This document shows, piece after piece, positions 1,379 through 10,737 of a stretch of DNA of 11,528 bases. Origin of the DNA: an uncultured Prevotella sp. (lineage in GTDB: Bacteria > Bacteroidota > Bacteroidia > Bacteroidales > Bacteroidaceae). A program made the translations under genes and the position numbers. Positions within the stretch are counted from its first letter, which is position 1, and every line of letters begins with the position of its first letter. Location of the stretch: NCBI GenBank assembly GCA_947304695.1, contig CAMZBS010000061.1:1-11528 (forward strand). The letters run 5' to 3'. The notes under the pieces are model-generated. The model did no database searches and was not told where the DNA came from. It was given only the letters and a program-made list of their open reading frames with translations.

Positions 1379-2173
1379 TCACTTTTTGATCTCGATGTCG
1401 CGGCGCACGTTGTCGCGAATCTTCGTGAGATACCCCTTCATTCCATCGGCATCCTTGTTGTCGATGATTTCGAGCAGCTCCTTCAGCTCCGTGCGAATCT
1501 GCGACACCTGGTCGTGGGTGTAGGGGTTGAAGAGTATTTCCTGCAGCAGGTAGTCGTCCTCGTTGAGCACGCCCTTGGCTATGCGCATGTGGCGCTTGAA
1601 GGTGGTGCCCGGCGCGTCCTGATGCTTCATGACGGCGGCAAAGACGAAGGTCGAGACGAATGGGATACTCAAGGAGTAGGCCACCGTGCGGTCGTGCTCC
1701 TCGAAGGTGTACTCATAGATGTTGAGTCCAAGTCGCTGGTAGAGGTCCTTGAAGAAGATGCGGCCCATGTAGTCGCCCTCGCTGATGATGATGGCGTTCT
1801 CCTCGGAGAGCTGGTTCAGGTTGGCAAACGTGGGGCCGAACATCGGGTGGGTCGAGACGTAGCGCATGCCCGTCGACTCATAGAACTCCTTCAAGTCGGT
1901 CTTCACCGAAGCAATGTCGCTGATGATGCACTCCTTCGGCAGATGGGGAATCATCTCGCGGAACACGGGGATGGTGTACTTCAGCGTCACGGCATTGATG
2001 AGCAGTTCGGGCTTGAAAGCCTCCACCTCCTCATAGGTTGTGAACCGCTGGCAGTTGTACGTAAACCGCATGCGCTTGGGGTCTTTCTCAAACACGGCCA
2101 CCTCGTGGTCAAAACTCAGCAGGTCGATGAAGAACGAGCCCATCTTGCCTGCACCTAATACTAATATCTTCAT
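1379..2173 (-). CDS. tyrA: Prephenate dehydrogenase (TyrA)
   Basis: The enzyme catalyses NAD(P)+-dependent oxidative decarboxylation of prephenate to 4-hydroxyphenylpyruvate, the tyrosine arm. The 264-residue chain starts with a Rossmann nucleotide-binding motif, GAGKMG, at 7-12. SDIASVKT (85-92) and STHPMFGP (107-114, with probable catalytic H109) are typical of the TyrA family, as is EEHDR at 158-162 at the start of the helical dimerisation domain. It has no fused chorismate mutase and no ACT domain, so feedback control is not visible here. The chorismate mutase activity is on the neighbouring gene product. It is the last gene of the minus-strand aromatic operon, 132 nt after the DAHP synthase-mutase gene, with a repeat pair in the gap. 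The start is the ATG at 2173, immediately before the Rossmann strand, and no plausible earlier start is seen. Confidence 0.93.
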   Translation of the reverse strand: MKILVLGAGKMGSFFIDLLSFDHEVAVFEKDPKRMRFTYNCQRFTTYEEVEAFKPELLINAVTLKYTIPVFREMIPHLPKECIISDIASVKTDLKEFYESTGMRYVSTHPMFGPTFANLNQLSEENAIIISEGDYMGRIFFKDLYQRLGLNIYEYTFEEHDRTVAYSLSIPFVSTFVFAAVMKHQDAPGTTFKRHMRIAKGVLNEDDYLLQEILFNPYTHDQVSQIRTELKELLEIIDNKDADGMKGYLTKIRDNVRRDIEIKK

Positions 2174-2305: not shown

Positions 2306-3370
2306 CTACTTGTTGATGATTTCTATCTGCTGTCTTACTGACTCTTCGTGGATGCTCTCGAAGACGTGGGCCACAAAGTCGGCACCCATGCCGCAGAGGG
2401 CACCCTGAGCGCCTCGCTTCGACAGGATTTCGTTGTAGCGCGAGGCCTGCAGCACGGTCATGTTGTGCTCCTTCTTGTACTGGCCTATCTCGCGGCACAC
2501 GCGCATGCGCTTGGCCAGCAGGTCCATGAGCTGGTTGTCCAGCTCGTCAATCTGCTTGCGCAGCTGCTGGATGCCCTCGGTGGTGGTGTGCTCGTCGCGG
2601 ATGACCAGCAGCGACAGGATGTAGTCGAGCACGTCGGGCGTGACCTGCTGGGCGGCGTCGCTCCATGCCTTGTCGGGGTCGCAGTGGCTCTCAACGATGA
2701 GGCCGTCGAAGCCCAGGTCCATAGCCTGCTGGCAGAGCGGAGCGATGAGCTCGCGGCGACCGCCGATGTGGCTGGGGTCGCTGATGATGGGCAGGTCGGG
2801 TATGCGGCGGTGCAGCTCGATGGGAATCTGCCACATGGGCATGTTGCGGTAGATCTTCTTCTCGTAGGAAGAGAAGCCACGATGGATGGCACCCAACCGC
2901 TTGATGCCAGCCTGGTTGATGCGCTCCAGGGCGCCAATCCACAGCTCCAGGTCGGGGTTGACGGGGTTCTTCACAAACACGGGCACGTCGGCACCCTTCA
3001 GCGCGTCGGCCAGTGCCTGCATGGCAAAGGGGTTGGCCGAGGTGCGTGCGCCGACCCACAGGATGTCGACATCATACTTCAGTGCCAGTTCCACATGCTC
3101 AGGCGTGGCCACTTCGGTGGAGATGAGCATCTTCGTCTCTTTCTTCACCTGCTGCAGCCAGACGAGGGCGGGCTCGCCGTGTCCTTCAAAGCCGCCGGGC
3201 TTGGTGCGGGGCTTCCATACGCCTGCACGGAAGTTGTGGCAGCCCTTCATGGCCAGTTGGCGGGCGGTGGTCATCACTTGCTCTTCGGTCTCGGCCGAGC
3301 AGGGGCCTGCAATCACGAAGGGACGTTCGTTGTCGCTGGGAAGGTTCAGTTTCTCTAATTCTAATTCCAT
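2306..3370 (-). CDS. Bifunctional DAHP synthase-chorismate mutase
   Basis: The fusion joins the first step of the shikimate pathway (phosphoenolpyruvate plus erythrose 4-phosphate to DAHP) to the chorismate-to-prephenate step. Residues about 15-250 form a KDO8P-synthase-like (type I beta) DAHP synthase barrel: AGPCSAE (21-27), a KPRTKPGGFEG segment (53-63), KNPVNPD (134-140), HRGFS (163-167), SDPSHIGG (197-204) and ESHCDPDKA (227-235). Residues about 263-354 form an AroQ-type helical chorismate mutase, with LRKQIDELDNQL, R288 and an IGQYKK helix. In other bacteria such a fused mutase can act as the feedback sensor for the synthase. I place the start at the ATG at 3370, where the conserved protein begins (MELELEKL). 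An in-frame ATG at 3415 adds 15 residues encoded mostly by a repeat, but it has the better ribosome site (AAAGGAG). A gene symbol is withheld because aroF, aroG, aroA and pheB are all used for this fusion. Confidence 0.92.
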   Translation of the reverse strand: MELELEKLNLPSDNERPFVIAGPCSAETEEQVMTTARQLAMKGCHNFRAGVWKPRTKPGGFEGHGEPALVWLQQVKKETKMLISTEVATPEHVELALKYDVDILWVGARTSANPFAMQALADALKGADVPVFVKNPVNPDLELWIGALERINQAGIKRLGAIHRGFSSYEKKIYRNMPMWQIPIELHRRIPDLPIISDPSHIGGRRELIAPLCQQAMDLGFDGLIVESHCDPDKAWSDAAQQVTPDVLDYILSLLVIRDEHTTTEGIQQLRKQIDELDNQLMDLLAKRMRVCREIGQYKKEHNMTVLQASRYNEILSKRGAQGALCGMGADFVAHVFESIHEESVRQQIEIINK

Positions 3371-3376
3371 ATTGAA

Positions 3377-3406
3377 AGCCCACCCAAACCCTCCCAAGGG
3401 GAGGGA
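3377..3406. repeat. GC-rich palindromic repeat, unit 3
   Basis: The plus strand reads AGCCCACCC, three bases, then CCTCCC AAGG GGAGGG and A. It matches unit 4 (3550-3579) in opposite orientation and is a variant of units 1 and 2. It lies between two candidate starts of the DAHP synthase-mutase gene and is in frame with it, so if translation began at 3415 this repeat would encode most of a 15-residue N-terminal extension. Confidence 0.65.
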
Positions 3407-3419
3407 TAAATACATACGG

Positions 3420-3530: not shown

Positions 3531-4727
3531 CTATCCGTCCAGACATCCCTCCCTCCCTTTGGGAGGGCAGGGGTGGGCTTTTATCCGTTCCAACGCCTCT
3601 TGTATCTTCTCTTCCTTGGCGCAGAGCGAGATGCGGATGTAGCGTTCGCCGTTAGAGCCGAAGATGAAGCCTGGGGTGATGAACACGCGGGCTTCGTGAA
3701 GGATGCGCTCCGTCAGGTCTTCCACATTATTATAGTGAGCGGGTATCTTGCCCCAGAGGAACATGCCCACCTGCTCCTTGTCGTAGGTGCAGTCCAACAC
3801 GTCCATGATCTGTTCGGCATAGCGGCGGCGGCGGGCGTAGGTCTCGATGTTGAACTCGCGGTGCCAGGCCTCGTCGTTCTTGTAAGCCTCGGCAGCAGCC
3901 AACTGTATGCCCCGGAAGGTTCCGCTCTCGATGTTCGACTGTACCTTCAGAATCCACTGGATGAACTGGGCGTTGGTGGCACAGAGACCCACGCGCCAGC
4001 CCGGCATGTTGTGGCTCTTCGACATCGAGTTGAACTCAATGCAGCACTCCTTGGCTCCGGGCACCTGGAGCATCGACATGGGCGTGTCGTTGAGGATGAA
4101 GGAGTAGGGGTTGTCGTTGACCACGACGATGTTGTTGTTGCGGGCAAACTGCACCACACGCTCGTAGGTCTCGCGACGGGCACGGCCGCCGGTGGGCATG
4201 TTGGGATAGTTCATCCACATCAGCTTCACGCGGCTCAGGTCCATCTTCTCCAGTTCGTCGAAGTCGGGCTGCCAGCCGTTGTCCTCGCGCAGGTTGTAGT
4301 TCACAATCTTGGCACCCAGAATCTTGCTCAGCGAGGTGTAGGTGGGGTAGCCGGGGTTGGGCACGAGCACCTCGTCGCCTGGATTGACAAAGGCCAGCGT
4401 GACGTGCAGGATGCCTTCCTTCGAGCCGATGAGCGGCAGTATCTCCGTCTTGGCGTCGAGCTCCACGTCGTACCAACGCTTATAGAACGCGGCCATAGCC
4501 CCACGCAGTTCGGGCGTGCCCATCGTGGGCTGATAGCCGTGGGCCGTCGGGTCGTGGGCCACCTCACACAGTTTCTCAATGGTCTGTTCCGACGGCGGCA
4601 TGTCGGGACTGCCTATGGCCAGGCTGATAATGTCCTTGCCCTCGGCATTCATCTGTGCCACCTCTTTCAGCTTGCGGCTGAAGTAGTATTCGCTAACGAG
4701 CGATAAACGGTCTGCTGGTTGTATCAT
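3531..4727 (-). CDS. PLP-dependent class I/II aminotransferase of the aromatic operon
   Basis: This is a fold-type I aminotransferase that probably converts phenylpyruvate and 4-hydroxyphenylpyruvate to Phe and Tyr. That substrate choice comes from its operon, not from a specific motif. Visible family residues are N176 in MNYPNMPTG, D205/Y208 in NDNPYS, Schiff-base K237 in SMSKSHNMPGWR and the carboxylate-binding R365 in YIRIS. At 398 residues it has the usual length. Annotation pipelines may call it LL-diaminopimelate or aspartate aminotransferase, and a broad or different substrate range is possible. The start is the ATG at 4727 (MIQPADRLSL). An upstream in-frame start at 4760 would add 11 residues drawn from the spacer and is unlikely. 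The last ~15 residues after ALERIK are encoded by a GC-rich repeat and look like a read-through extension. It lies 48 nt downstream of pheA. Confidence 0.9.
   Translation of the reverse strand: MIQPADRLSLVSEYYFSRKLKEVAQMNAEGKDIISLAIGSPDMPPSEQTIEKLCEVAHDPTAHGYQPTMGTPELRGAMAAFYKRWYDVELDAKTEILPLIGSKEGILHVTLAFVNPGDEVLVPNPGYPTYTSLSKILGAKIVNYNLREDNGWQPDFDELEKMDLSRVKLMWMNYPNMPTGGRARRETYERVVQFARNNNIVVVNDNPYSFILNDTPMSMLQVPGAKECCIEFNSMSKSHNMPGWRVGLCATNAQFIQWILKVQSNIESGTFRGIQLAAAEAYKNDEAWHREFNIETYARRRRYAEQIMDVLDCTYDKEQVGMFLWGKIPAHYNNVEDLTERILHEARVFITPGFIFGSNGERYIRISLCAKEEKIQEALERIKAHPCPPKGREGCLDG
3550..3579. repeat. GC-rich palindromic repeat, unit 4 (inverted mate of unit 3)
   Basis: The plus strand reads TCCCTCCC TTTGGGAGGG, three bases, then GGGTGGGCT, the reverse complement of the unit 3 pattern. 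It lies inside the 3' end of the aminotransferase frame and encodes the last residues (AHPCPPKGREG). About 140 nt of AT-rich sequence separates units 3 and 4. I see no promoter box or gene in that stretch. Confidence 0.65.
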
Positions 4728-4775
4728 AATGCTTAATATTTTACTTGTGACTTCTAACATCTTCCCTCTTCCATC

Positions 4776-5606
4776 TTACCTCCCTACGTATTCTCCCAGT
4801 ATCTTCAAGTCCCTTGTCAGCGGGATGATGGCATCGACGGCCTGGCGGTAGCGCACCAGCGACTCGAACACCACGTCGACGTAGAACAGATATTCCCATT
4901 CGCGGCCGATGATGGGCAGCGACTGAATCTTCGTGAGGTTGATCTTGTAGAACGAGAGAATGGCCAGCACGGCTGAGAGCGACCCTTCCTCGTGGGGCAG
5001 CGAGAAGACGATGCTCGACTTGTTGGCCTCGGTGATGGGACGCAGCAGGTCGGCCTTCTGCGGAGCCGAACACACCAGGAAGCGGGTGAAGTTGTGCTTG
5101 TTGTCCTCAATGCCGTCCTCCAGCACCTTCAGTCCGTAGAGGCGTGCAGCGTCGGCGTGGCAGATGGCGGCCCATCCGTGGTGCTGCCCTTCGGCTATCA
5201 TCCGGGCCGAGCCAGCCGTGTCCTCGCCTTCCACGATGCGCAGTTCGGGGTGTCCCTCCAGGTAGTGGCGCGTCTGCATCAGGGCCACGGGGTGTGAATG
5301 CACCTCGGTGATGGTCGACCAGTCATCGTCGGGCAGGCAGCAGATGCAGTGGGTGATGTGCAGCTTGTGCTCGCCCACCACCGTTGTGTCGCTGTCGCGC
5401 AGCAGCTCGTAGTTGTGGAGCAGGCTTCCCGCAATGGTGTTCTCGATGGCCGCCATTGCAATCACCGTCGGGTCTTGGCTCACGGCCTCGTAGACCTTCT
5501 CGAACGTGGGGCAGCAGATGAGCTGTATCTGTTCGCCCTTGAAGTACTGGTGGGCTGCAATGTCGTGGAACGACCCTACGATGCCCTGAATTGCTATTCG
5601 TTTCAT
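4776..5606 (-). CDS. pheA: Prephenate dehydratase (PheA), monofunctional with ACT domain
   Basis: The enzyme decarboxylates and dehydrates prephenate to phenylpyruvate, the phenylalanine arm. The 276-residue chain has the dehydratase domain at about 3-182: IENTIAGSL (54-62), VHSHPVALMQ (102-111) and NFTRF (172-176), whose TRF triplet is the catalytic signature. An ACT domain follows at about 197-270, beginning SSIVFSLPHEEGSLSAVL. The phenylalanine-binding GAL motif reads GSL and the ESRP motif reads QSLP, so allosteric Phe binding may be altered or may be lineage-typical. There is no fused chorismate mutase; that activity comes from the DAHP synthase-mutase gene downstream. It is the first gene of the aromatic operon, and its ATG lies 21 nt after the T-tract of a terminator that forms part of the Phe/Tyr-codon attenuator. 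Confidence 0.95.
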   Translation of the reverse strand: MKRIAIQGIVGSFHDIAAHQYFKGEQIQLICCPTFEKVYEAVSQDPTVIAMAAIENTIAGSLLHNYELLRDSDTTVVGEHKLHITHCICCLPDDDWSTITEVHSHPVALMQTRHYLEGHPELRIVEGEDTAGSARMIAEGQHHGWAAICHADAARLYGLKVLEDGIEDNKHNFTRFLVCSAPQKADLLRPITEANKSSIVFSLPHEEGSLSAVLAILSFYKINLTKIQSLPIIGREWEYLFYVDVVFESLVRYRQAVDAIIPLTRDLKILGEYVGR

Positions 5607-5627: not shown

Positions 5628-5664
5628 AAAAAAACTCCGCTTTCACTTTGTCTGTGAAGCGGAG
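5628..5664 (-). terminator. Intrinsic terminator of the pheA attenuator
   Basis: On the minus strand, CTCCGCTTCAC (5664-5654) pairs with GTGAAAGCGGAG (5646-5635): an 8-bp GC-rich stem, a bulged A and 3 more bp, with a 7-nt loop. Seven T residues follow (5634-5628). This is a textbook intrinsic terminator, yet it sits inside the 5' leader, ahead of pheA, so it must be bypassed for the operon to be expressed. Its 5' arm can alternatively pair with 5717-5725. Confidence 0.88.
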
Positions 5665-5725
5665 CCCTTTCTGTTTTTTCTTTTCAAAAATCATTTTTCA
5701 ACTTACACACGCTCTACCGCTTCAC
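5654..5725 (-). promoter_or_regulatory. Antiterminator of the Phe/Tyr attenuator
   Basis: GTGAAGCGG (5725-5717, within leader codons 19-22) is a perfect 9-bp complement of CCGCTTCAC (5662-5654), the 5' arm of the terminator. The two structures are mutually exclusive. The first arm begins 10 nt after the last Phe codon and ends 11 nt before the stop codon, so a ribosome stalled early in the Tyr/Phe run would leave it free, and one at the stop would probably mask it. A weaker pairing of TGCATAC (leader codons 5-7) with GTGTGTA near the stop could be the 1:2 hairpin. Confidence 0.75.
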
Positions 5726-5780
5726 AATTGCTTGCAAAGTAAAAGTAATAGCCGTAAAAGTATGCACGTTGATTCGTCAT
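5703..5780 (-). CDS. Phe/Tyr leader peptide of the aromatic operon attenuator
   Basis: This is a 25-codon ORF starting at the ATG at 5780 and ending in TAA at 5703-5705. Residues 7-15 read YFYGYYFYF, so eight of nine codons are Tyr or Phe (five Tyr, three Phe in the peptide), followed by ASNCEAVERV. The end products of the downstream operon are exactly Phe and Tyr. By analogy with the proteobacterial pheA and his leaders, a ribosome slowed at these codons by scarce charged tRNA would leave 5717-5725 free to form an antiterminator. Rapid translation to the stop would cover that segment and let the terminator at 5628-5664 form. The start has an A-rich upstream region without a Shine-Dalgarno site, like neighbouring starts. 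The coding call rests on composition, position and the matching hairpins. Confidence 0.88.
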   Translation of the reverse strand: MTNQRAYFYGYYFYFASNCEAVERV

Positions 5781-5811
5781 GTTTGTTTAAACTTTTTTCT
5801 ATTTTCGGTTG

Positions 5812-5843
5812 CAAAAGTAATACTTTTCCCCGAACTATGCAAA
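5812..5843 (-). promoter_or_regulatory. Promoter of the pheA-aminotransferase-DAHPS/CM-tyrA operon
   Basis: On the minus strand TTTG (5843-5840) and TACTTTTG (5819-5812) match the Bacteroidetes -33 and -7 elements, with a 20-nt spacer as expected for this class. Transcription would start around 5805, about 25 nt before the leader peptide ATG. This is the clearest promoter in the window. Confidence 0.72.
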
Positions 5844-6919: not shown

Positions 6920-7117
6920 ATGTTTGGACTGGGTATGCAAGAGGTGCTCGTGATTGCCCTCATCGTGTTGCTGCTTTTCGGCGGCAGGAAGATTCCCGAG
7001 CTGATGCGCGGGCTGGGCAAGGGCGTCAAGAGCTTCAAGCAGGGCATGAACGAGCCTTTGGAGGAGCTGGAAACGGATAAGAAAGAGGAGAAAAAGACGG
7101 AAATGAAGCATGAGTGA
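6920..7117 (+). CDS. tatA: Sec-independent protein translocase subunit TatA
   Basis: TatA is the pore-forming subunit that oligomerises with TatC to move folded, mostly cofactor-bearing proteins across the inner membrane. The 65-residue chain has the standard plan: a short N-terminal membrane helix (about 7-20, [11 protein letters not shown]), the conserved FGG hinge (20-22), an amphipathic helix ([16 protein letters not shown]) and a charged KE-rich tail. A single TatA-like gene with no separate tatB suggests a minimal TatAC system in which TatA also does the TatB job, unless another copy lies elsewhere in the genome. Its last 8 nt overlap the start of tatC, which implies translational coupling. 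It is the first gene of an operon whose two downstream products carry twin-arginine motifs. Confidence 0.93.
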
Positions 7118-7847
7118 GCCGCTCACGTTCTGGGACCATCTCGACGAACTGCGCTCCTGCATCATCCGTTCGCTGGTGGTCGTCATGGCGGCGGCAGTGG
7201 TGGCCTTCTGTCTGAAGGACTGGCTGTTTGCTGTGGTGCTGGCTCCGCGTTCGGGCGATTTCGTCAGCTATCGCCTGCTGGGCATCGACAGCAGCTTCTC
7301 CATCCACCTGATGAACATCGGGCTTACCGAGCAGTTCATGACCCACATGCGGGTGGCACTCTATGCCGGACTGCTCATCGCCTCGCCCTACGTGCTCTAT
7401 CAGCTGTTCCGCTTCGTGTCGCCAGGACTCTATCAGAACGAGCGCAAGGCGGCCACCTGGGTCGTCACGTCGGCCTACGTGATGTTTGTCGTGGGCACGC
7501 TCTTGAACTATCTGCTCATCTTTCCCCTCACGGTGCGCTTCCTGGGCACCTATCAGGTAAGTCCCGATGTGCAGAACATGCTCACCCTTCAGTCGTACAT
7601 CGACACGCTCATCGGCATGAGCTTCGTCATGGGGGTGGTGTTCGAACTGCCCGTGGTCTGTGCCATTCTGGGGCGGCTGGGGTTAATCAACGGACGGATG
7701 ATGTCGAAGTACCGCCGTCACGCCATTGTGGCCATCCTGATTGTTGCCGCCATCATCACGCCCACGGTCGATGTGTTCACGCTCTTCGTGGTGTCGCTGC
7801 CCATCTGGCTGCTCTATGAAGTGAGCATCCTTGTAGTTAGGAATTAG
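7110..7847 (+). CDS. tatC: Sec-independent protein translocase subunit TatC
   Basis: TatC recognises twin-arginine signal peptides and assembles the translocon. The 245-residue protein has about six membrane segments and the family signatures: FWDHLDELR (7-15) in the N-terminal cytoplasmic signal-binding region, [12 protein letters not shown] (102-113, with E111) in the first cytoplasmic loop, GVVFELPVV (175-183, with conserved E179) and TPTVDVFT before the last helices. Length is normal. The start ATG overlaps the end of tatA by 8 nt. The last four residues (VVRN) and stop are encoded by one copy of a short direct repeat, so the extreme C-terminus is probably not conserved. The next gene, 32 nt downstream, encodes a probable Tat client. 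Confidence 0.95.
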
Positions 7848-7859
7848 GAGTTAGGAATT
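7835..7859. repeat. Short direct repeat across the tatC stop codon
   Basis: AGTTAGGAATT occurs at 7835-7845 and again at 7849-7859, a 14-nt period. The first copy encodes the end of TatC, including the stop. It resembles simple spacer sequence rather than a regulatory site. Confidence 0.55.
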
Positions 7860-7879
7860 GATAAAAAAACGACTTGTAT

Positions 7880-9337
7880 ATGCTAAGGAAAATTAGAATC
7901 GTGCTGGCTGTGGTGTTTTTTGTGGGACTCGCGCTGCTGTTTCTCGACTTCACCGGCACTGCCCACCACTGGCTGTCGTGGATGGCCAAGGTGCAGGCTC
8001 TGGAGGCTGTGCTGGCACTCAACGTGGTGGTCATCGCACTGCTGGCCGTGCTTACGCTGGTGCTCGGTCGCATCTACTGCTCCGTCATCTGCCCCTTGGG
8101 CGTGTTGCAGGACGTGTTCGGCTGGCTAGGCAAACGCCACAAGAAGAACCGCTACAGCTACTCAAAGGCCGTGAGCTGGCTGCGCTACGGCGTGCTGGTC
8201 GTGTTTGTCGCTGCCCTGGTGGCAGGCGTGGGCGTCGTGGTCCAGTTGCTGGCCCCTTATTCTGCCTTCGGACGCATCATGACCATGATTCTCCAGCCCG
8301 TATGGATGGAGGGCAACAACGTGCTGGCCTCGTTTGCCGAGTCGGCCGACAGCTATGCCTTCTATTCCGTCGACGTGTGGATGAAGTCGCTGCCCGTGCT
8401 CGTCATTGCCGTGGTCACGCTGGTGGTGCTCTTCGTGCTGGCCTGGCGTGGAGGCCGCACCTATTGCAACACCATCTGCCCTGTGGGCACGGTGCTGTCG
8501 TTTCTGGCCCGCTTCTCACTCTTCAAGATACGGTTCAATGCCGACAAGTGCAAGAACTGTTCGCTCTGCTCCAAGCAGTGCAAGGCCGCCTGCATCGACT
8601 ATAAGAACCACACTGTCGACCACTCGCGCTGTGTGGTGTGTGGCGACTGCCTGGAGAGCTGCAAGTTCGGTGCACTCAGCTACGGTCTGAGCGTAGAGCG
8701 TAAAGCGGAGAGCAGCAGTCGCCGCTCCTTCCTCCTGTCTTCAGCCCTGCTTACCACAGCGGCACTGGCACAGGAGAAGAAGAAGGTGGACGGCGGACTG
8801 GCCGAGATAAAAGACAAGGTGGCCCCCGAGCGACAGACACCGCTCACGCCCCCGGGTTCGCTCTCGGCAAGCCATTTCGCCCAGCACTGCACGGGCTGCC
8901 AGCTCTGCGTGAGCAAGTGTCCCAACCAGGTGCTGCGTCCCTCTGCCGACCTCATGCACTTCATGCTGCCCGTGATGAGCTACGAGCGCGGCTACTGCCG
9001 TCCCGAATGTACACGCTGCTCAGAGGTGTGTCCTGCCGGAGCCATCAAGCCCATTGACCGCGACGAGAAGACATCCATTCAGATAGGCCATGCGGTGTTC
9101 ATCCAGAAGAACTGCGTCAGCGTGAGCGACGGCGTGGAGTGCGGCAACTGTGCCCGTCACTGTCCTGCCGGAGCCATCGAGATGGTGCCGCTCGACCCCG
9201 ACGACGACCTGTCGCCCTCCGTCCCCGCCGTCAACGAAAGCCGCTGCATCGGTTGCGGCGCCTGCGAATATGTGTGCCCGTCGCGTCCGTTCTCCGCTAT
9301 CTTCGTGGAGGGGCATGAAGTACACCGTGACATATAG
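7880..9337 (+). CDS. Membrane polyferredoxin, NapH-NapG-like fusion with internal Tat signal
   Basis: This is a 485-residue membrane iron-sulfur protein (positions below from the ATG at 7880). Residues 1-270 resemble NapH, the quinol-oxidising subunit of periplasmic nitrate reductase systems: four membrane helices (about 5-24, 43-63, 104-125, 171-189), two CxxxCP loops (YCSVICP, YCNTICP) and two cytoplasmic 4Fe-4S motifs at about 224-261. Then SSRRSFLLSSALLTTAALA (279-297) is a twin-arginine signal with a possible AxA cleavage site, in the middle of the chain. Residues about 335-470 contain four further 4Fe-4S motifs, the NapG/MauM pattern. The reading frame is continuous. By inference, electrons pass from menaquinol via the cytoplasmic-side clusters to an exported ferredoxin. 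No nap catalytic gene is present; the partner is more likely the aldo/keto reductase 17 nt downstream. A TTG at 7874 is an alternative start. Confidence 0.82.
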   Translation: MLRKIRIVLAVVFFVGLALLFLDFTGTAHHWLSWMAKVQALEAVLALNVVVIALLAVLTLVLGRIYCSVICPLGVLQDVFGWLGKRHKKNRYSYSKAVSWLRYGVLVVFVAALVAGVGVVVQLLAPYSAFGRIMTMILQPVWMEGNNVLASFAESADSYAFYSVDVWMKSLPVLVIAVVTLVVLFVLAWRGGRTYCNTICPVGTVLSFLARFSLFKIRFNADKCKNCSLCSKQCKAACIDYKNHTVDHSRCVVCGDCLESCKFGALSYGLSVERKAESSSRRSFLLSSALLTTAALAQEKKKVDGGLAEIKDKVAPERQTPLTPPGSLSASHFAQHCTGCQLCVSKCPNQVLRPSADLMHFMLPVMSYERGYCRPECTRCSEVCPAGAIKPIDRDEKTSIQIGHAVFIQKNCVSVSDGVECGNCARHCPAGAIEMVPLDPDDDLSPSVPAVNESRCIGCGACEYVCPSRPFSAIFVEGHEVHRDI

Positions 9338-9354
9338 AACCCCTTTTTTTTGAT

Positions 9355-10737
9355 ATGGAAGAAAAGAAAAACATAAGCCGTCGCTCCTTTCTGAAGTACG
9401 TGGGAGCCGGAACAGCCGCCGCACTCGTTGCCTGCACCGGCAACAAGCAGGAGCAGAAGGCTGCCGAAGAATATAAGAGTCAGGTGGAGCCGCCCGTAGG
9501 CAAGATGACCTACCGCCAGAACCTCAAGGGCGAGAAAGTGTCGCTGCTGGGCTACGGCATGATGCGCCTGCCCACGAAGCCCGACAACAACGATGAGTTC
9601 GACCAGGAGATGATCAACCGCCAGGTGGACTACGCCATCGAGCACGGTGTGAACTACTTCGACACCAGCCCTGCCTACTGTCGTGGCCTGTCGGAACGCT
9701 GCACGGGCATCGCCCTGAGCCGCCACAAGCGCAGCGAGTACTTCGTGGCCACGAAGCTGTCGAACTTCTCGCCCGACACCCAGAGCCGTGAGGCATCCAT
9801 CGAGATGTACCACAACTCGATGCGCGAGCTGCAGGTCGACTACATCGACTACTACCTGCTGCACGCCATCGGCGGGTCGGGCATGGACGACCTGCACCGC
9901 CGCTATCTGGACAACGGCATGCTCGACTTCCTGGTGGCCGAGCGCGAGGCAGGCCGAATCAAGAACCTGGGCTTCTCCTATCATGGCAACATCAAGGTGT
10001 TCGACTACCTCTTGGAGCACCACAACCAATATAAGTGGGACTTTGTGCAGATAGAGCTGAACTACCTGGACTGGGACTTCGCCAACGAGATCAACAACAG
10101 CAACACCGATGCCCGCTACCTCTACGGCGAGTTGCAGAAGCGCAACATCCCCGCCGTCATCATGGAGCCGCTGCTGGGCGGGCGACTGTCCAACCTGCCG
10201 CAATACCTCATGACCGAGCTCAAGCAGCGCGCCCCTGAGAAGAGCGTGGCCTCATGGGCCTTCCGCTATGCCGGTACGCCCAAGGGCGTGCTCACCGTGC
10301 TCAGCGGCATGACCTATATGGAACACCTGAAGGACAACCTCTTGAGCTACTGTCCGCTTGAACCGCTCACCGACGATGAGATGGCCTTCCTTCACAGAGA
10401 CATCGCCACCAAGATTGTCGGTCTGGAGAACATCCCCTGCAACGACTGCAAGTACTGCATGCCCTGTCCCTACGGCATCGACATTCCCGGCATCTTCGTC
10501 CATTACAACAAGTGCAAGAACGACGGCACGCTGCCCCATACCGTTGGCGACCCAGACTACAGGAAGCACCGCCGCCAGTACCTCATCAGCATGGATCGTG
10601 CCGTTCCCCGCGAGCGTCAGGCCGACCACTGCATCCAGTGCGGCCAGTGTCAGCCCCACTGTCCACAGGGCATACGCATCCCCCGCGAGCTGCGCAAGAT
10701 CGACGAGTTCGTGGAGCAGCTCCGCCGCGATGCATGA
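9355..10737 (+). CDS. Tat-exported aldo/keto reductase with C-terminal ferredoxin domain
   Basis: The 460-residue protein begins with a Tat signal, ISRRSFLKYVGAGTAAALVAC, combined with a lipobox (LVAC, C27), predicting a folded lipoprotein anchored at the periplasmic face of a membrane. Residues about 55-345 form an aldo/keto reductase barrel with all four catalytic positions: D103 and Y108 (YFDTSPAY), K134 (VATK) and H170 (YYLLH). The C-terminal part holds two 4Fe-4S motifs: CNDCKYCMPCP (362-372) and CIQCGQCQPHCP (426-437). AKRs normally use NAD(P)H, which is scarce outside the cytoplasm. The clusters suggest that electrons instead come from the neighbouring membrane polyferredoxin, or that a bound nucleotide is exported with the folded protein. 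The substrate is unknown. It is the last full gene of the tat operon. Confidence 0.88.
   Translation: MEEKKNISRRSFLKYVGAGTAAALVACTGNKQEQKAAEEYKSQVEPPVGKMTYRQNLKGEKVSLLGYGMMRLPTKPDNNDEFDQEMINRQVDYAIEHGVNYFDTSPAYCRGLSERCTGIALSRHKRSEYFVATKLSNFSPDTQSREASIEMYHNSMRELQVDYIDYYLLHAIGGSGMDDLHRRYLDNGMLDFLVAEREAGRIKNLGFSYHGNIKVFDYLLEHHNQYKWDFVQIELNYLDWDFANEINNSNTDARYLYGELQKRNIPAVIMEPLLGGRLSNLPQYLMTELKQRAPEKSVASWAFRYAGTPKGVLTVLSGMTYMEHLKDNLLSYCPLEPLTDDEMAFLHRDIATKIVGLENIPCNDCKYCMPCPYGIDIPGIFVHYNKCKNDGTLPHTVGDPDYRKHRRQYLISMDRAVPRERQADHCIQCGQCQPHCPQGIRIPRELRKIDEFVEQLRRDA

What the first reader, a model, noticed from the sequence alone, without database searches (positions are those of the whole stretch)
5628..5843. 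Leader-peptide attenuator sensing both Tyr and Phe ahead of the pheA operon
A 25-codon ORF that is too short for routine gene calling carries YFYGYYFYF at residues 7-15. It lies behind a clear -33/-7 promoter and directly before an intrinsic terminator that precedes pheA. The downstream operon makes precursors of exactly these two amino acids. Classical pheA leaders are rich in Phe only; here one leader mixes five Tyr and three Phe codons, fitting an operon that contains both pheA and tyrA. Ribosome-mediated attenuation is well known in Proteobacteria, and I know of little described in Bacteroidetes, where it would also imply transcription-translation coupling in leaders.
Basis: partly seen in the sequence, partly recalled or inferred. 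Interest (0 to 1): 0.92.

Follow-up and report, generated by a model that had tools for sequence, protein, structure and literature searches.

The report
Tyrosine-and-phenylalanine-sensing leader peptide switch
A short leader peptide packed with tyrosine and phenylalanine codons, kept in distant relatives of this bacterium, looks like a switch that turns on the genes for making these two amino acids when the cell runs short of either.

Summary
Confirmed: a 25-codon ORF (minus strand 5780-5703, MTNQRAYFYGYYFYFASNCEAVERV) lies between a Bacteroidota-type promoter and an intrinsic terminator before pheA-aminotransferase-DAHP synthase/chorismate mutase-tyrA. Such a Tyr/Phe-packed leader stands in 180 of 217 pheA upstream regions, against 19 of 4,340 shuffles. 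All 180 have a U-tract hairpin; in 164 the leader's own 3' part complements the terminator's 5' arm, the classical antiterminator arrangement, with spacing that fits ribosome control. It reaches Prevotella, Flavobacterium and Mucilaginibacter.

Dual sensing gains support from operon content: with tyrA, aminotransferase or DAHP synthase just downstream, 142 of 142 leaders have Tyr in the run; with none there, 0 of 11 do (three changes on a PheA tree). Detached tyrA/DAHP-synthase operons have their own Tyr+Phe leaders.

Best reading: ribosome-mediated attenuation answering to both amino acids. The mechanism is known, and leader-peptide clues and a pheA 5' element in Flavobacteriaceae are in print (PMC9723704). 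The Tyr+Phe input and its re-tuning when operons split look new. Nothing was tested at the bench.

The parts
5840..5843 (-). -33 promoter element TTTG
   Evidence: Sequence read; 20 nt before the -7 element. A TTG lies in a like position in 126 of 180 leader loci.
5812..5819 (-). -7 promoter element TACTTTTG (TAnnTTTG type)
   Evidence: TAnnTTTG within 90 nt upstream of the leader ATG in 139 of 180 loci, against 5.4% of shuffled regions.
5703..5780 (-). Leader peptide ORF, 25 codons plus TAA: MTNQRAYFYGYYFYFASNCEAVERV
   Evidence: Tyr/Phe leader found in 180 of 217 pheA upstream regions.
5736..5762 (-). Control codons YFYGYYFYF (5 Tyr, 3 Phe); also segment 1
   Evidence: the consensus fold pairs the end of the run with GTGAA of segment 2, mostly invariant pairs, so weak evidence.
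5717..5725 (-). Segment 2, antiterminator 5' half, GUGAAGCGG, inside the leader ORF
   Evidence: Complementary to 5662-5654; predicted duplex -18.1 kcal/mol, 0 of 100 shuffles as good.
5654..5662 (-). Segment 3, CCGCUUCAC, shared by antiterminator and terminator
   Evidence: 5662-5655 kept in 41-45 of 45 aligned leaders, while 5667-5663, outside the antiterminator helix, vary (commonest base in 25-35 of 45).
5628..5666 (-). Intrinsic terminator hairpin with U tract (segments 3 and 4)
   Evidence: dG -17.9; two outer pairs change C-G to U-A in 15 and 11 of 45 aligned leaders.
4776..5606 (-). pheA, prephenate dehydratase (276 aa)
   Evidence: NCBIfam prephenate dehydratase models, below the curated cut-off; PF00800 in the listed close relatives.
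3531..4760 (-). Aminotransferase (409 aa)
   Evidence: NCBIfam aminotransferase models, those shown below their cut-offs, best LL-diaminopimelate aminotransferase; an aromatic substrate is inferred from context.
2306..3415 (-). DAHP synthase - chorismate mutase fusion (369 aa)
   Evidence: NCBIfam DAHP synthase and chorismate mutase stretches, below cut-offs.
1379..2173 (-). tyrA, prephenate dehydrogenase (264 aa)
   Evidence: PF02153 over its cut-off; NCBIfam prephenate dehydrogenase models below cut-offs.

Best explanation
It is a ribosome-mediated transcription attenuator that reads the supply of charged Tyr-tRNA and Phe-tRNA. Shown by sequence and comparison: promoter, leader ORF, a Tyr/Phe codon run, segment 2 just after the run, and a terminator whose 5' arm (segment 3) can pair either with segment 2 or with segment 4. 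Inferred: when both amino acids are plentiful the ribosome runs to the stop codon and covers segment 2, segments 3 and 4 form the terminator, and the operon stays off. When Tyr or Phe is short the ribosome waits on the run; segment 2, starting about 9 nt after the run, stays free, pairs with segment 3 as soon as it is made, and RNA polymerase reads into pheA-aminotransferase-DAHP synthase/chorismate mutase-tyrA. The device acts as an OR gate for shortage of either amino acid, and its codon content follows the genes it controls.
For: (1) Leader in 180 of 217 pheA upstream regions, against 19 of 4,340 shuffles. Named anchors: Prevotella loci, Flavobacterium (L194), Mucilaginibacter (L124). (2) U-tract hairpin with dG <= -5 in 180 of 180, against 16 of 90 shuffled; the leader complements its own terminator arm at p <= 0.05 in 164 of 180. 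(3) Bases of segment 3 used by both structures are nearly frozen, while outer terminator-only pairs covary (45 of 83 near leaders aligned). (4) In the 164, segment 2 starts a median 9 nt (5-95%: 6-13) after the run; a ribosome at the stop codon would cover at least half of it in 140 of 164, one stalled at the last run codon a median 6% (footprint sizes assumed). (5) Codon content tracks genes: Tyr in the run of 142 of 142 leaders with a partner gene next downstream, of 0 of 11 leaders of solitary pheA; both traits change three times, together, on the PheA tree. (6) In 13 of 19 regions with detached tyrA/DAHP-synthase genes from 16 genomes with solitary pheA, a Tyr+Phe leader stands before them; these 13 all have a terminator and an antiterminator complement (p <= 0.015). 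(7) No Rfam family matches the window.
Against: No expression, ribosome or termination data. 37 of 217 upstream regions show no such leader by my rule; 26 of these have a PheA under 40% identical (14 of 40 such loci have it, against 166 of 177 others). The leader-swap test is only moderate: own leader among the best 5% for 46 of 118 distinct arms, best 10% for 71. In the full-length RNA the terminator is predicted even with a stalled ribosome masked, so the switch must rest on the order of synthesis. Only three changes carry the codon/gene-content argument, two of them forced by well-supported branches, too few for a sign test. 14 solitary-pheA loci had no usable leader, and several of the 11 have a Tyr outside the run.
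Confidence: 0.9

Rival explanations
1. The attenuator is real but answers to one amino acid only (Phe or Tyr); the other codons are passive filler or follow from base pairing.
For: Classical pheA leaders are Phe-dominated (recalled). Tyr and Phe codons differ by one base and swap between relatives. Run codons may also pair with segment 2.
Against: 174 of 180 leaders have at least 2 Tyr and at least 2 Phe in the best 9 codons. Tyr is missing from the run in 11 of 11 solitary-pheA leaders and present in 142 of 142 others. Detached tyrA/DAHP-synthase operons have Tyr+Phe leaders.
Confidence: 0.06
2. The nascent peptide itself arrests the ribosome in answer to a free metabolite (TnaC-like), or the peptide has a function of its own.
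For: Strong conservation of YFYGYYFYF and CEA among many of the Prevotella relatives.
Against: Tyr and Phe interchange at several run positions, and the peptide after the run differs between clades while complementarity to the terminator is kept, which fits codon identity and RNA pairing rather than a peptide fold.
Confidence: 0.02
3. The terminator is switched by a protein, a T-box or a riboswitch, and the ORF is a by-stander.
For: Terminators before aromatic operons are used by T-boxes in other phyla (established knowledge).
Against: No Rfam match at the gathering score in the window or in three relatives scanned (L036, L194, L124). The codon content of the ORF follows the gene content of the operon.
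Confidence: 0.01
4. Chance: a Tyr/Phe-rich frame in A/T-rich DNA next to the end terminator of the upstream TPR gene.
For: T-rich pattern hits for Tyr/Phe runs occur elsewhere in genomes about as often as for the reversed control.
Against: 180 of 217 against 19 of 4,340 shuffles; in the window the promoter elements (5843-5812) lie between the TPR gene's end (5872) and the leader.
Confidence: 0.005

Closest known systems
pheA / pheST leader-peptide attenuators of gammaproteobacteria (Rfam Phe leader; recalled, not from a call)
   Same: Short leader ORF with control codons, antiterminator/terminator choice, regulated gene pheA.
   Different: Those are Phe-dominated (recalled); here Tyr is as frequent as Phe and the operon includes tyrA and DAHP synthase/chorismate mutase. 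The window gives no Rfam match.
Bacteroid-trp RNA motif (RF01692), listed in PMC2864571 Table 1 (passage seen)
   Same: Listed as a cis-regulatory RNA of Bacteroidetes; recalled as lying before trp genes.
   Different: Not matched in the window; different gene and codons.
Structured 5' element before pheA in Flavobacterium psychrophilum and other Flavobacteriaceae (PMC9723704, section 19 read; supplement not readable here)
   Same: Very probably the same attenuator in that family: the paper reports leader-peptide clues before amino-acid operons and a conserved pheA 5' element without Rfam hits.
   Different: The section read gives no peptide, no Tyr/Phe codons, no antiterminator and no reach beyond the family.
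Multivalent attenuators such as thr (Thr/Ile) and ilv (Ile/Leu/Val) leaders of enterobacteria (recalled); Leu/phe leader of Lactococcus lactis (listed in PMC2864571)
   Same: One leader with codons for more than one amino acid.
   Different: None of them is known to me to read Tyr (recall).

Membership tests
Ribosome-mediated (leader-peptide) transcription attenuators | Short ORF rich in codons for the product(s) of the operon | tested here: met
   8 Tyr/Phe in 9 codons; conserved in 180 of 217.
Ribosome-mediated (leader-peptide) transcription attenuators | Intrinsic terminator between leader and first gene | tested here: met
   180 of 180 leaders, 16 of 90 in shuffles.
Ribosome-mediated (leader-peptide) transcription attenuators | Mutually exclusive antiterminator that pairs with the terminator's 5' arm | tested here: met
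   164 of 180 at p <= 0.05; only moderate in the swap test.
Ribosome-mediated (leader-peptide) transcription attenuators | Geometry: segment 2 free when the ribosome stalls on the run, covered when it reaches the stop | tested here: met
   assumed footprint: covered >= 50% at the stop in 140 of 164; median 6% covered when stalled at the last run codon.
Ribosome-mediated (leader-peptide) transcription attenuators | Protector pairing of segments 1 and 2 that keeps the operon off without translation | tested here: inconclusive
   predicts it, but the pairs hardly vary.
Ribosome-mediated (leader-peptide) transcription attenuators | Read-through rises on amino-acid limitation and depends on leader translation | not testable with these tools
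   Needs a reporter or RNA-seq/Ribo-seq.
Rfam leader families (Phe leader, Bacteroid-trp and others) | Match at the gathering score | tested here: not met
   0 matches in the window.
T-box riboswitch | Match to the T-box model | tested here: not met
   0 matches to any of 4,227 families.

The most novel reading that the evidence does not exclude
This is a Tyr-reading ribosome-mediated attenuator, a two-input (Tyr OR Phe shortage) gate kept widely across the Bacteroidia, whose codon vocabulary is re-tuned when the operon is rearranged: Phe only in the run when pheA stands alone, Tyr+Phe for the part that keeps tyrA and DAHP synthase. With similar His, Leu, Ile/Val and Thr leaders seen in the same phylum, leader-peptide attenuation would be a main way of controlling amino-acid synthesis in bacteria that initiate translation largely without Shine-Dalgarno pairing (recalled), which requires close coupling of transcription and translation there.
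Probability: 0.7. Interest if true: 0.75.

Novelty: new variant of a known kind. Interest (0 to 1): 0.66.

Why it matters
It gives a concrete, testable control switch for aromatic amino-acid synthesis in a phylum prominent in gut, rumen and environment. It extends leader-peptide attenuation to tyrosine. It also makes the question of transcription-translation coupling in Bacteroidota directly testable, because such a switch cannot work unless a ribosome follows the polymerase closely on the leader. The match between leader codons and operon content is a natural experiment: where the operon is split, the leader codons differ accordingly.

Tried and rejected
Generic promoter and terminator scan: found neither. 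Degenerate pattern for seven Tyr/Phe codons in three whole genomes: useless, the reversed control gives about as many hits. First automatic terminator/antiterminator finder without bulges: 58 of 174 leaders with p <= 0.05; it mis-called many stems, including the window's, and was replaced by local folding. In one search the line 'footprint ... 0 of 164' and the 'stop codon end minus seg2 end' figures came from a coordinate slip in my script; corrected. Considered and rejected: T-box/riboswitch, chance frame, peptide-specific arrest (run residues interchange).

Dropped rows and biases: L054 has only 140 nt upstream and was left out of the 217. L091 is the same place as L036, so the 217 hold one duplicate. 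Loci are not a random sample: 80 are the best PheA matches of one scan. 47 come from the 49 of 119 genomes with a match in the order draw (G403 and G444 not fetched; three of the loci shared). The DNA alignment holds the window and 44 of the 82 nearer leaders listed. In one search, 173 PheA loci gave 153 usable ones; 20 were dropped (14 without a partner gene, 6 with), for lacking a leader by the 5-of-7 rule, for under 700 nt downstream, or for a short PheA piece; among them L163 (MYFDFVFGFLFCFPKS, solitary, one Tyr) and L323 (SFYYFFY, with partner). L343 repeats L169 and was left out, so L169 itself is not among the 11. 'Solitary' means no partner found within 1.3 kb; about 5.8 kb was checked only for three. 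The tree holds 89 of the 153, is a quick one, and carries long-branch warnings. Of the 19 regions, six were not carried: L400, L401 and L413 start too near a contig end, L403 and L411 (DAHP synthase without tyrA) showed no convincing leader, and L406 has a weaker candidate (MRKVHSYWGFSFFTFIFK) that I did not test. The other-operon leaders had no shuffle control, and L260 was read there on the wrong strand.

Full report
OBSERVATION. The minus strand from 5780 to 5703 encodes MTNQRAYFYGYYFYFASNCEAVERV and stops with TAA. Upstream lie TTTG (5843-5840) and, 20 nt further, TACTTTTG (5819-5812), the Bacteroidota promoter type (the consensus is recalled). Downstream is a hairpin with a U tract (5666-5628, dG -17.9), then pheA (5606-4776), an aminotransferase, a DAHP synthase-chorismate mutase and tyrA. 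The generic scan for sigma-70 promoters and simple terminators reported nothing here.

HIDDEN PART. Inside the ORF, GUGAAGCGG (5725-5717) is the complement of CCGCUUCAC (5662-5654) in the 5' arm of the terminator. The same arm can therefore form an antiterminator with the leader or a terminator with the 3' arm. With a stalled ribosome masked and the RNA made only up to the terminator loop, the predicted fold is the antiterminator; in the finished RNA the terminator is predicted. The switch must therefore work by the order of synthesis, as in classical attenuators (established knowledge).

CONSERVATION NEARBY. One scan of named genomes gave 80 PheA loci, titled Prevotella, Prevotellaceae, Bacteroidaceae, Bacteroidales or Xylanibacter. 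A strict search for the run found it in 76 of these 80 and in the window; the misses were L003, L004, L026 and L054. L003 has a variant run (NFYFYSWYYF) and L054 only 140 nt upstream. L004 and L026 have what reads like another gene directly upstream and no partner gene downstream (5,998 and 967 nt seen). In an alignment of 45 leaders (the window and 44 of 82 near ones) the bases of the terminator's 5' arm that pair in both structures (5662-5655) are kept in 41 to 45 of 45. The bases next to them (5667-5663), which pair in the terminator only, vary, with C-G to U-A changes of two pairs in 15 and 11 of 45. That is the constraint expected of a shared segment.

CONSERVATION FAR AWAY. Dinucleotide-preserving shuffles reach this in 19 of 4,340. 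Where PheA is at least 40% identical to the window's, 166 of 177 have it; below that, 14 of 40. Two of the unnamed loci could be placed by their PheA: the listed named hits of L194's are Flavobacterium, and nearly all of L124's Mucilaginibacter. The leader thus spans at least Bacteroidales, Flavobacteriales and Sphingobacteriales (orders recalled).

STRUCTURE FAR AWAY. All 180 leaders are followed by a U-tract hairpin of dG -5 or lower (median -18.4), against 16 of 90 shuffled regions. In 164 of 180 the stretch after the run complements the 5' arm of its own terminator at p <= 0.05 against 100 shuffles each. The paired sequence differs between clades (for example GUGAAGCGG, AGCCGGGACU, CGAGGCUUU, GACGGG). 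Exchanging leaders between species is a harder test with a moderate result: the own leader is among the best 5% for 46 of 118 distinct arms and the best 10% for 71, I think because several clades share a GCGGGA-like core.

GEOMETRY. In the 164, segment 2 starts a median of 9 nt after the last run codon (5-95%: 6-13). With an assumed footprint, a ribosome at the stop codon covers at least half of segment 2 in 140 of 164, while one stalled at the last run codon covers a median of 6%. TAnnTTTG lies within 90 nt upstream of the leader in 139 of 180 (5.4% in shuffles).

WHY TYR AND PHE. In 174 of 180 leaders the best 9 codons hold at least two Tyr and two Phe; three hold no Tyr. Those three (L143, L151, L169) turned out to be loci where pheA stands alone, with no aminotransferase, tyrA or DAHP synthase found in about 5.8 kb downstream; of the 14 other loci looked at in the same call, all have at least one of these genes. 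I then drew the families of these three genomes and classified 173 loci. Of 153 usable ones, 142 have such a partner gene within 1.3 kb, and all 142 leaders have Tyr in the best 7 codons; 11 have none within 1.3 kb, and none of the 11 has Tyr in its best 7 codons, which are runs such as FFFFFF (Fisher p 5e-17, not corrected for kinship). Several of the 11 have a Tyr elsewhere in the peptide, such as SYLY near the end of L151's. On a PheA tree of 89 of the 153 both traits change three times and together; starred branches force two changes, too few for a sign test.

SPLIT OPERONS. I looked for tyrA and DAHP synthase in 16 genomes with solitary pheA, ten with a Phe-run leader on pheA and six without a usable one, and fetched 19 regions. 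In 13 of the 19, from 13 genomes, a Tyr+Phe leader stands before the genes (for example MIKNISVFAYFYYYFYFSKK), and these 13 all have a terminator and an antiterminator complement at p <= 0.015. Five of the 13 are Phe-richer (2-3 Tyr, 5-6 Phe). Of the other six regions, three start too near a contig end, two are DAHP synthase without tyrA and showed no convincing leader, and one has a weaker, untested candidate. 14 solitary-pheA loci had no usable leader on pheA, among them L163 with a Phe-rich one containing one Tyr.

OPERONS WITHOUT tyrA. In Mucilaginibacter-like loci (L237, L242) pheA is followed by DAHP synthase-chorismate mutase and by genes that I read as aroA and aroC (no family search) rather than tyrA, and the leader is still Tyr+Phe. 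This suits DAHP synthase and chorismate mutase serving both amino acids, so the rule is better stated as Tyr codons accompanying genes that Tyr synthesis needs.

WHAT IS KNOWN. Leader-peptide attenuation is a classical mechanism. For Bacteroidota, PMC9723704 (section 19 read) reports leader-peptide clues before amino-acid operons of Flavobacterium psychrophilum and a conserved, Rfam-less 5' element before pheA in Flavobacteriaceae. PMC7366714 (passages seen) mentions sORFs in Bacteroides thetaiotaomicron 5' UTRs reminiscent of leader peptides. PMC2864571 (table passages seen) lists Bacteroid-trp. PMC2965389 (passages seen) wrote in 2010 that leader peptides had to its authors' knowledge been shown only in Proteobacteria and Actinobacteria. 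A 2004 comparative study by Vitreschak and others (seen only as a citation) and a 2010 one by Lopatovskaya and others (citation) were not read; I recall that the former names Bacteroidetes/Chlorobi cases. In the listings of my ten paper searches I saw no description of a Tyr-reading or Tyr+Phe leader, but most subscription journals are not in that library.

VERDICT. Regulation was not measured.

Noticed in passing
L249, L253, L255-L259 (hisG); L261, L263-L267 (leuA); L272, L274, L276, L283 (ilvD); L285-L288, L292 (aspartate kinase): Short ORFs rich in His, Leu/Ile, Ile/Val or Thr/Ile codons upstream of the matching biosynthesis genes in several of 12 Bacteroidota genomes (e.g. MISIQLHHHHLHYCSQAMC, MIFNTSIITTIIITTGINQRG); none of this kind seen for hisG or aspartate kinase in G001, G002 and G397, the genomes nearest the window (no shuffle control).
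   Followed up: partly
180 Tyr/Phe leaders: 41 of 180 leaders also contain Trp, so some may read all three aromatic amino acids; not tested.
   Followed up: no
window 7110-10737, plus strand: tatC, a membrane-type polyferredoxin and a Tat-signal aldo/keto reductase with a 4Fe-4S domain follow one another, a possible exported redox module.
   Followed up: no
L163, about 143-92 nt upstream of pheA: Solitary pheA with a Phe-rich leader MYFDFVFGFLFCFPKS and a visible hairpin with a U tract, missed by the cut-offs; a possible fourth case of a Phe leader on a solitary pheA, though with one Tyr.
   Followed up: partly
L326-L331 (family of G425): Solitary pheA without a visible leader, while L151 and L325 of the same family have Phe-run leaders: apparent loss of the attenuator, or a mis-set start.
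   Followed up: no
L268 (G217 leuA): The leuA match carries one in-frame TAG stop; pseudogene or sequencing error.
   Followed up: no
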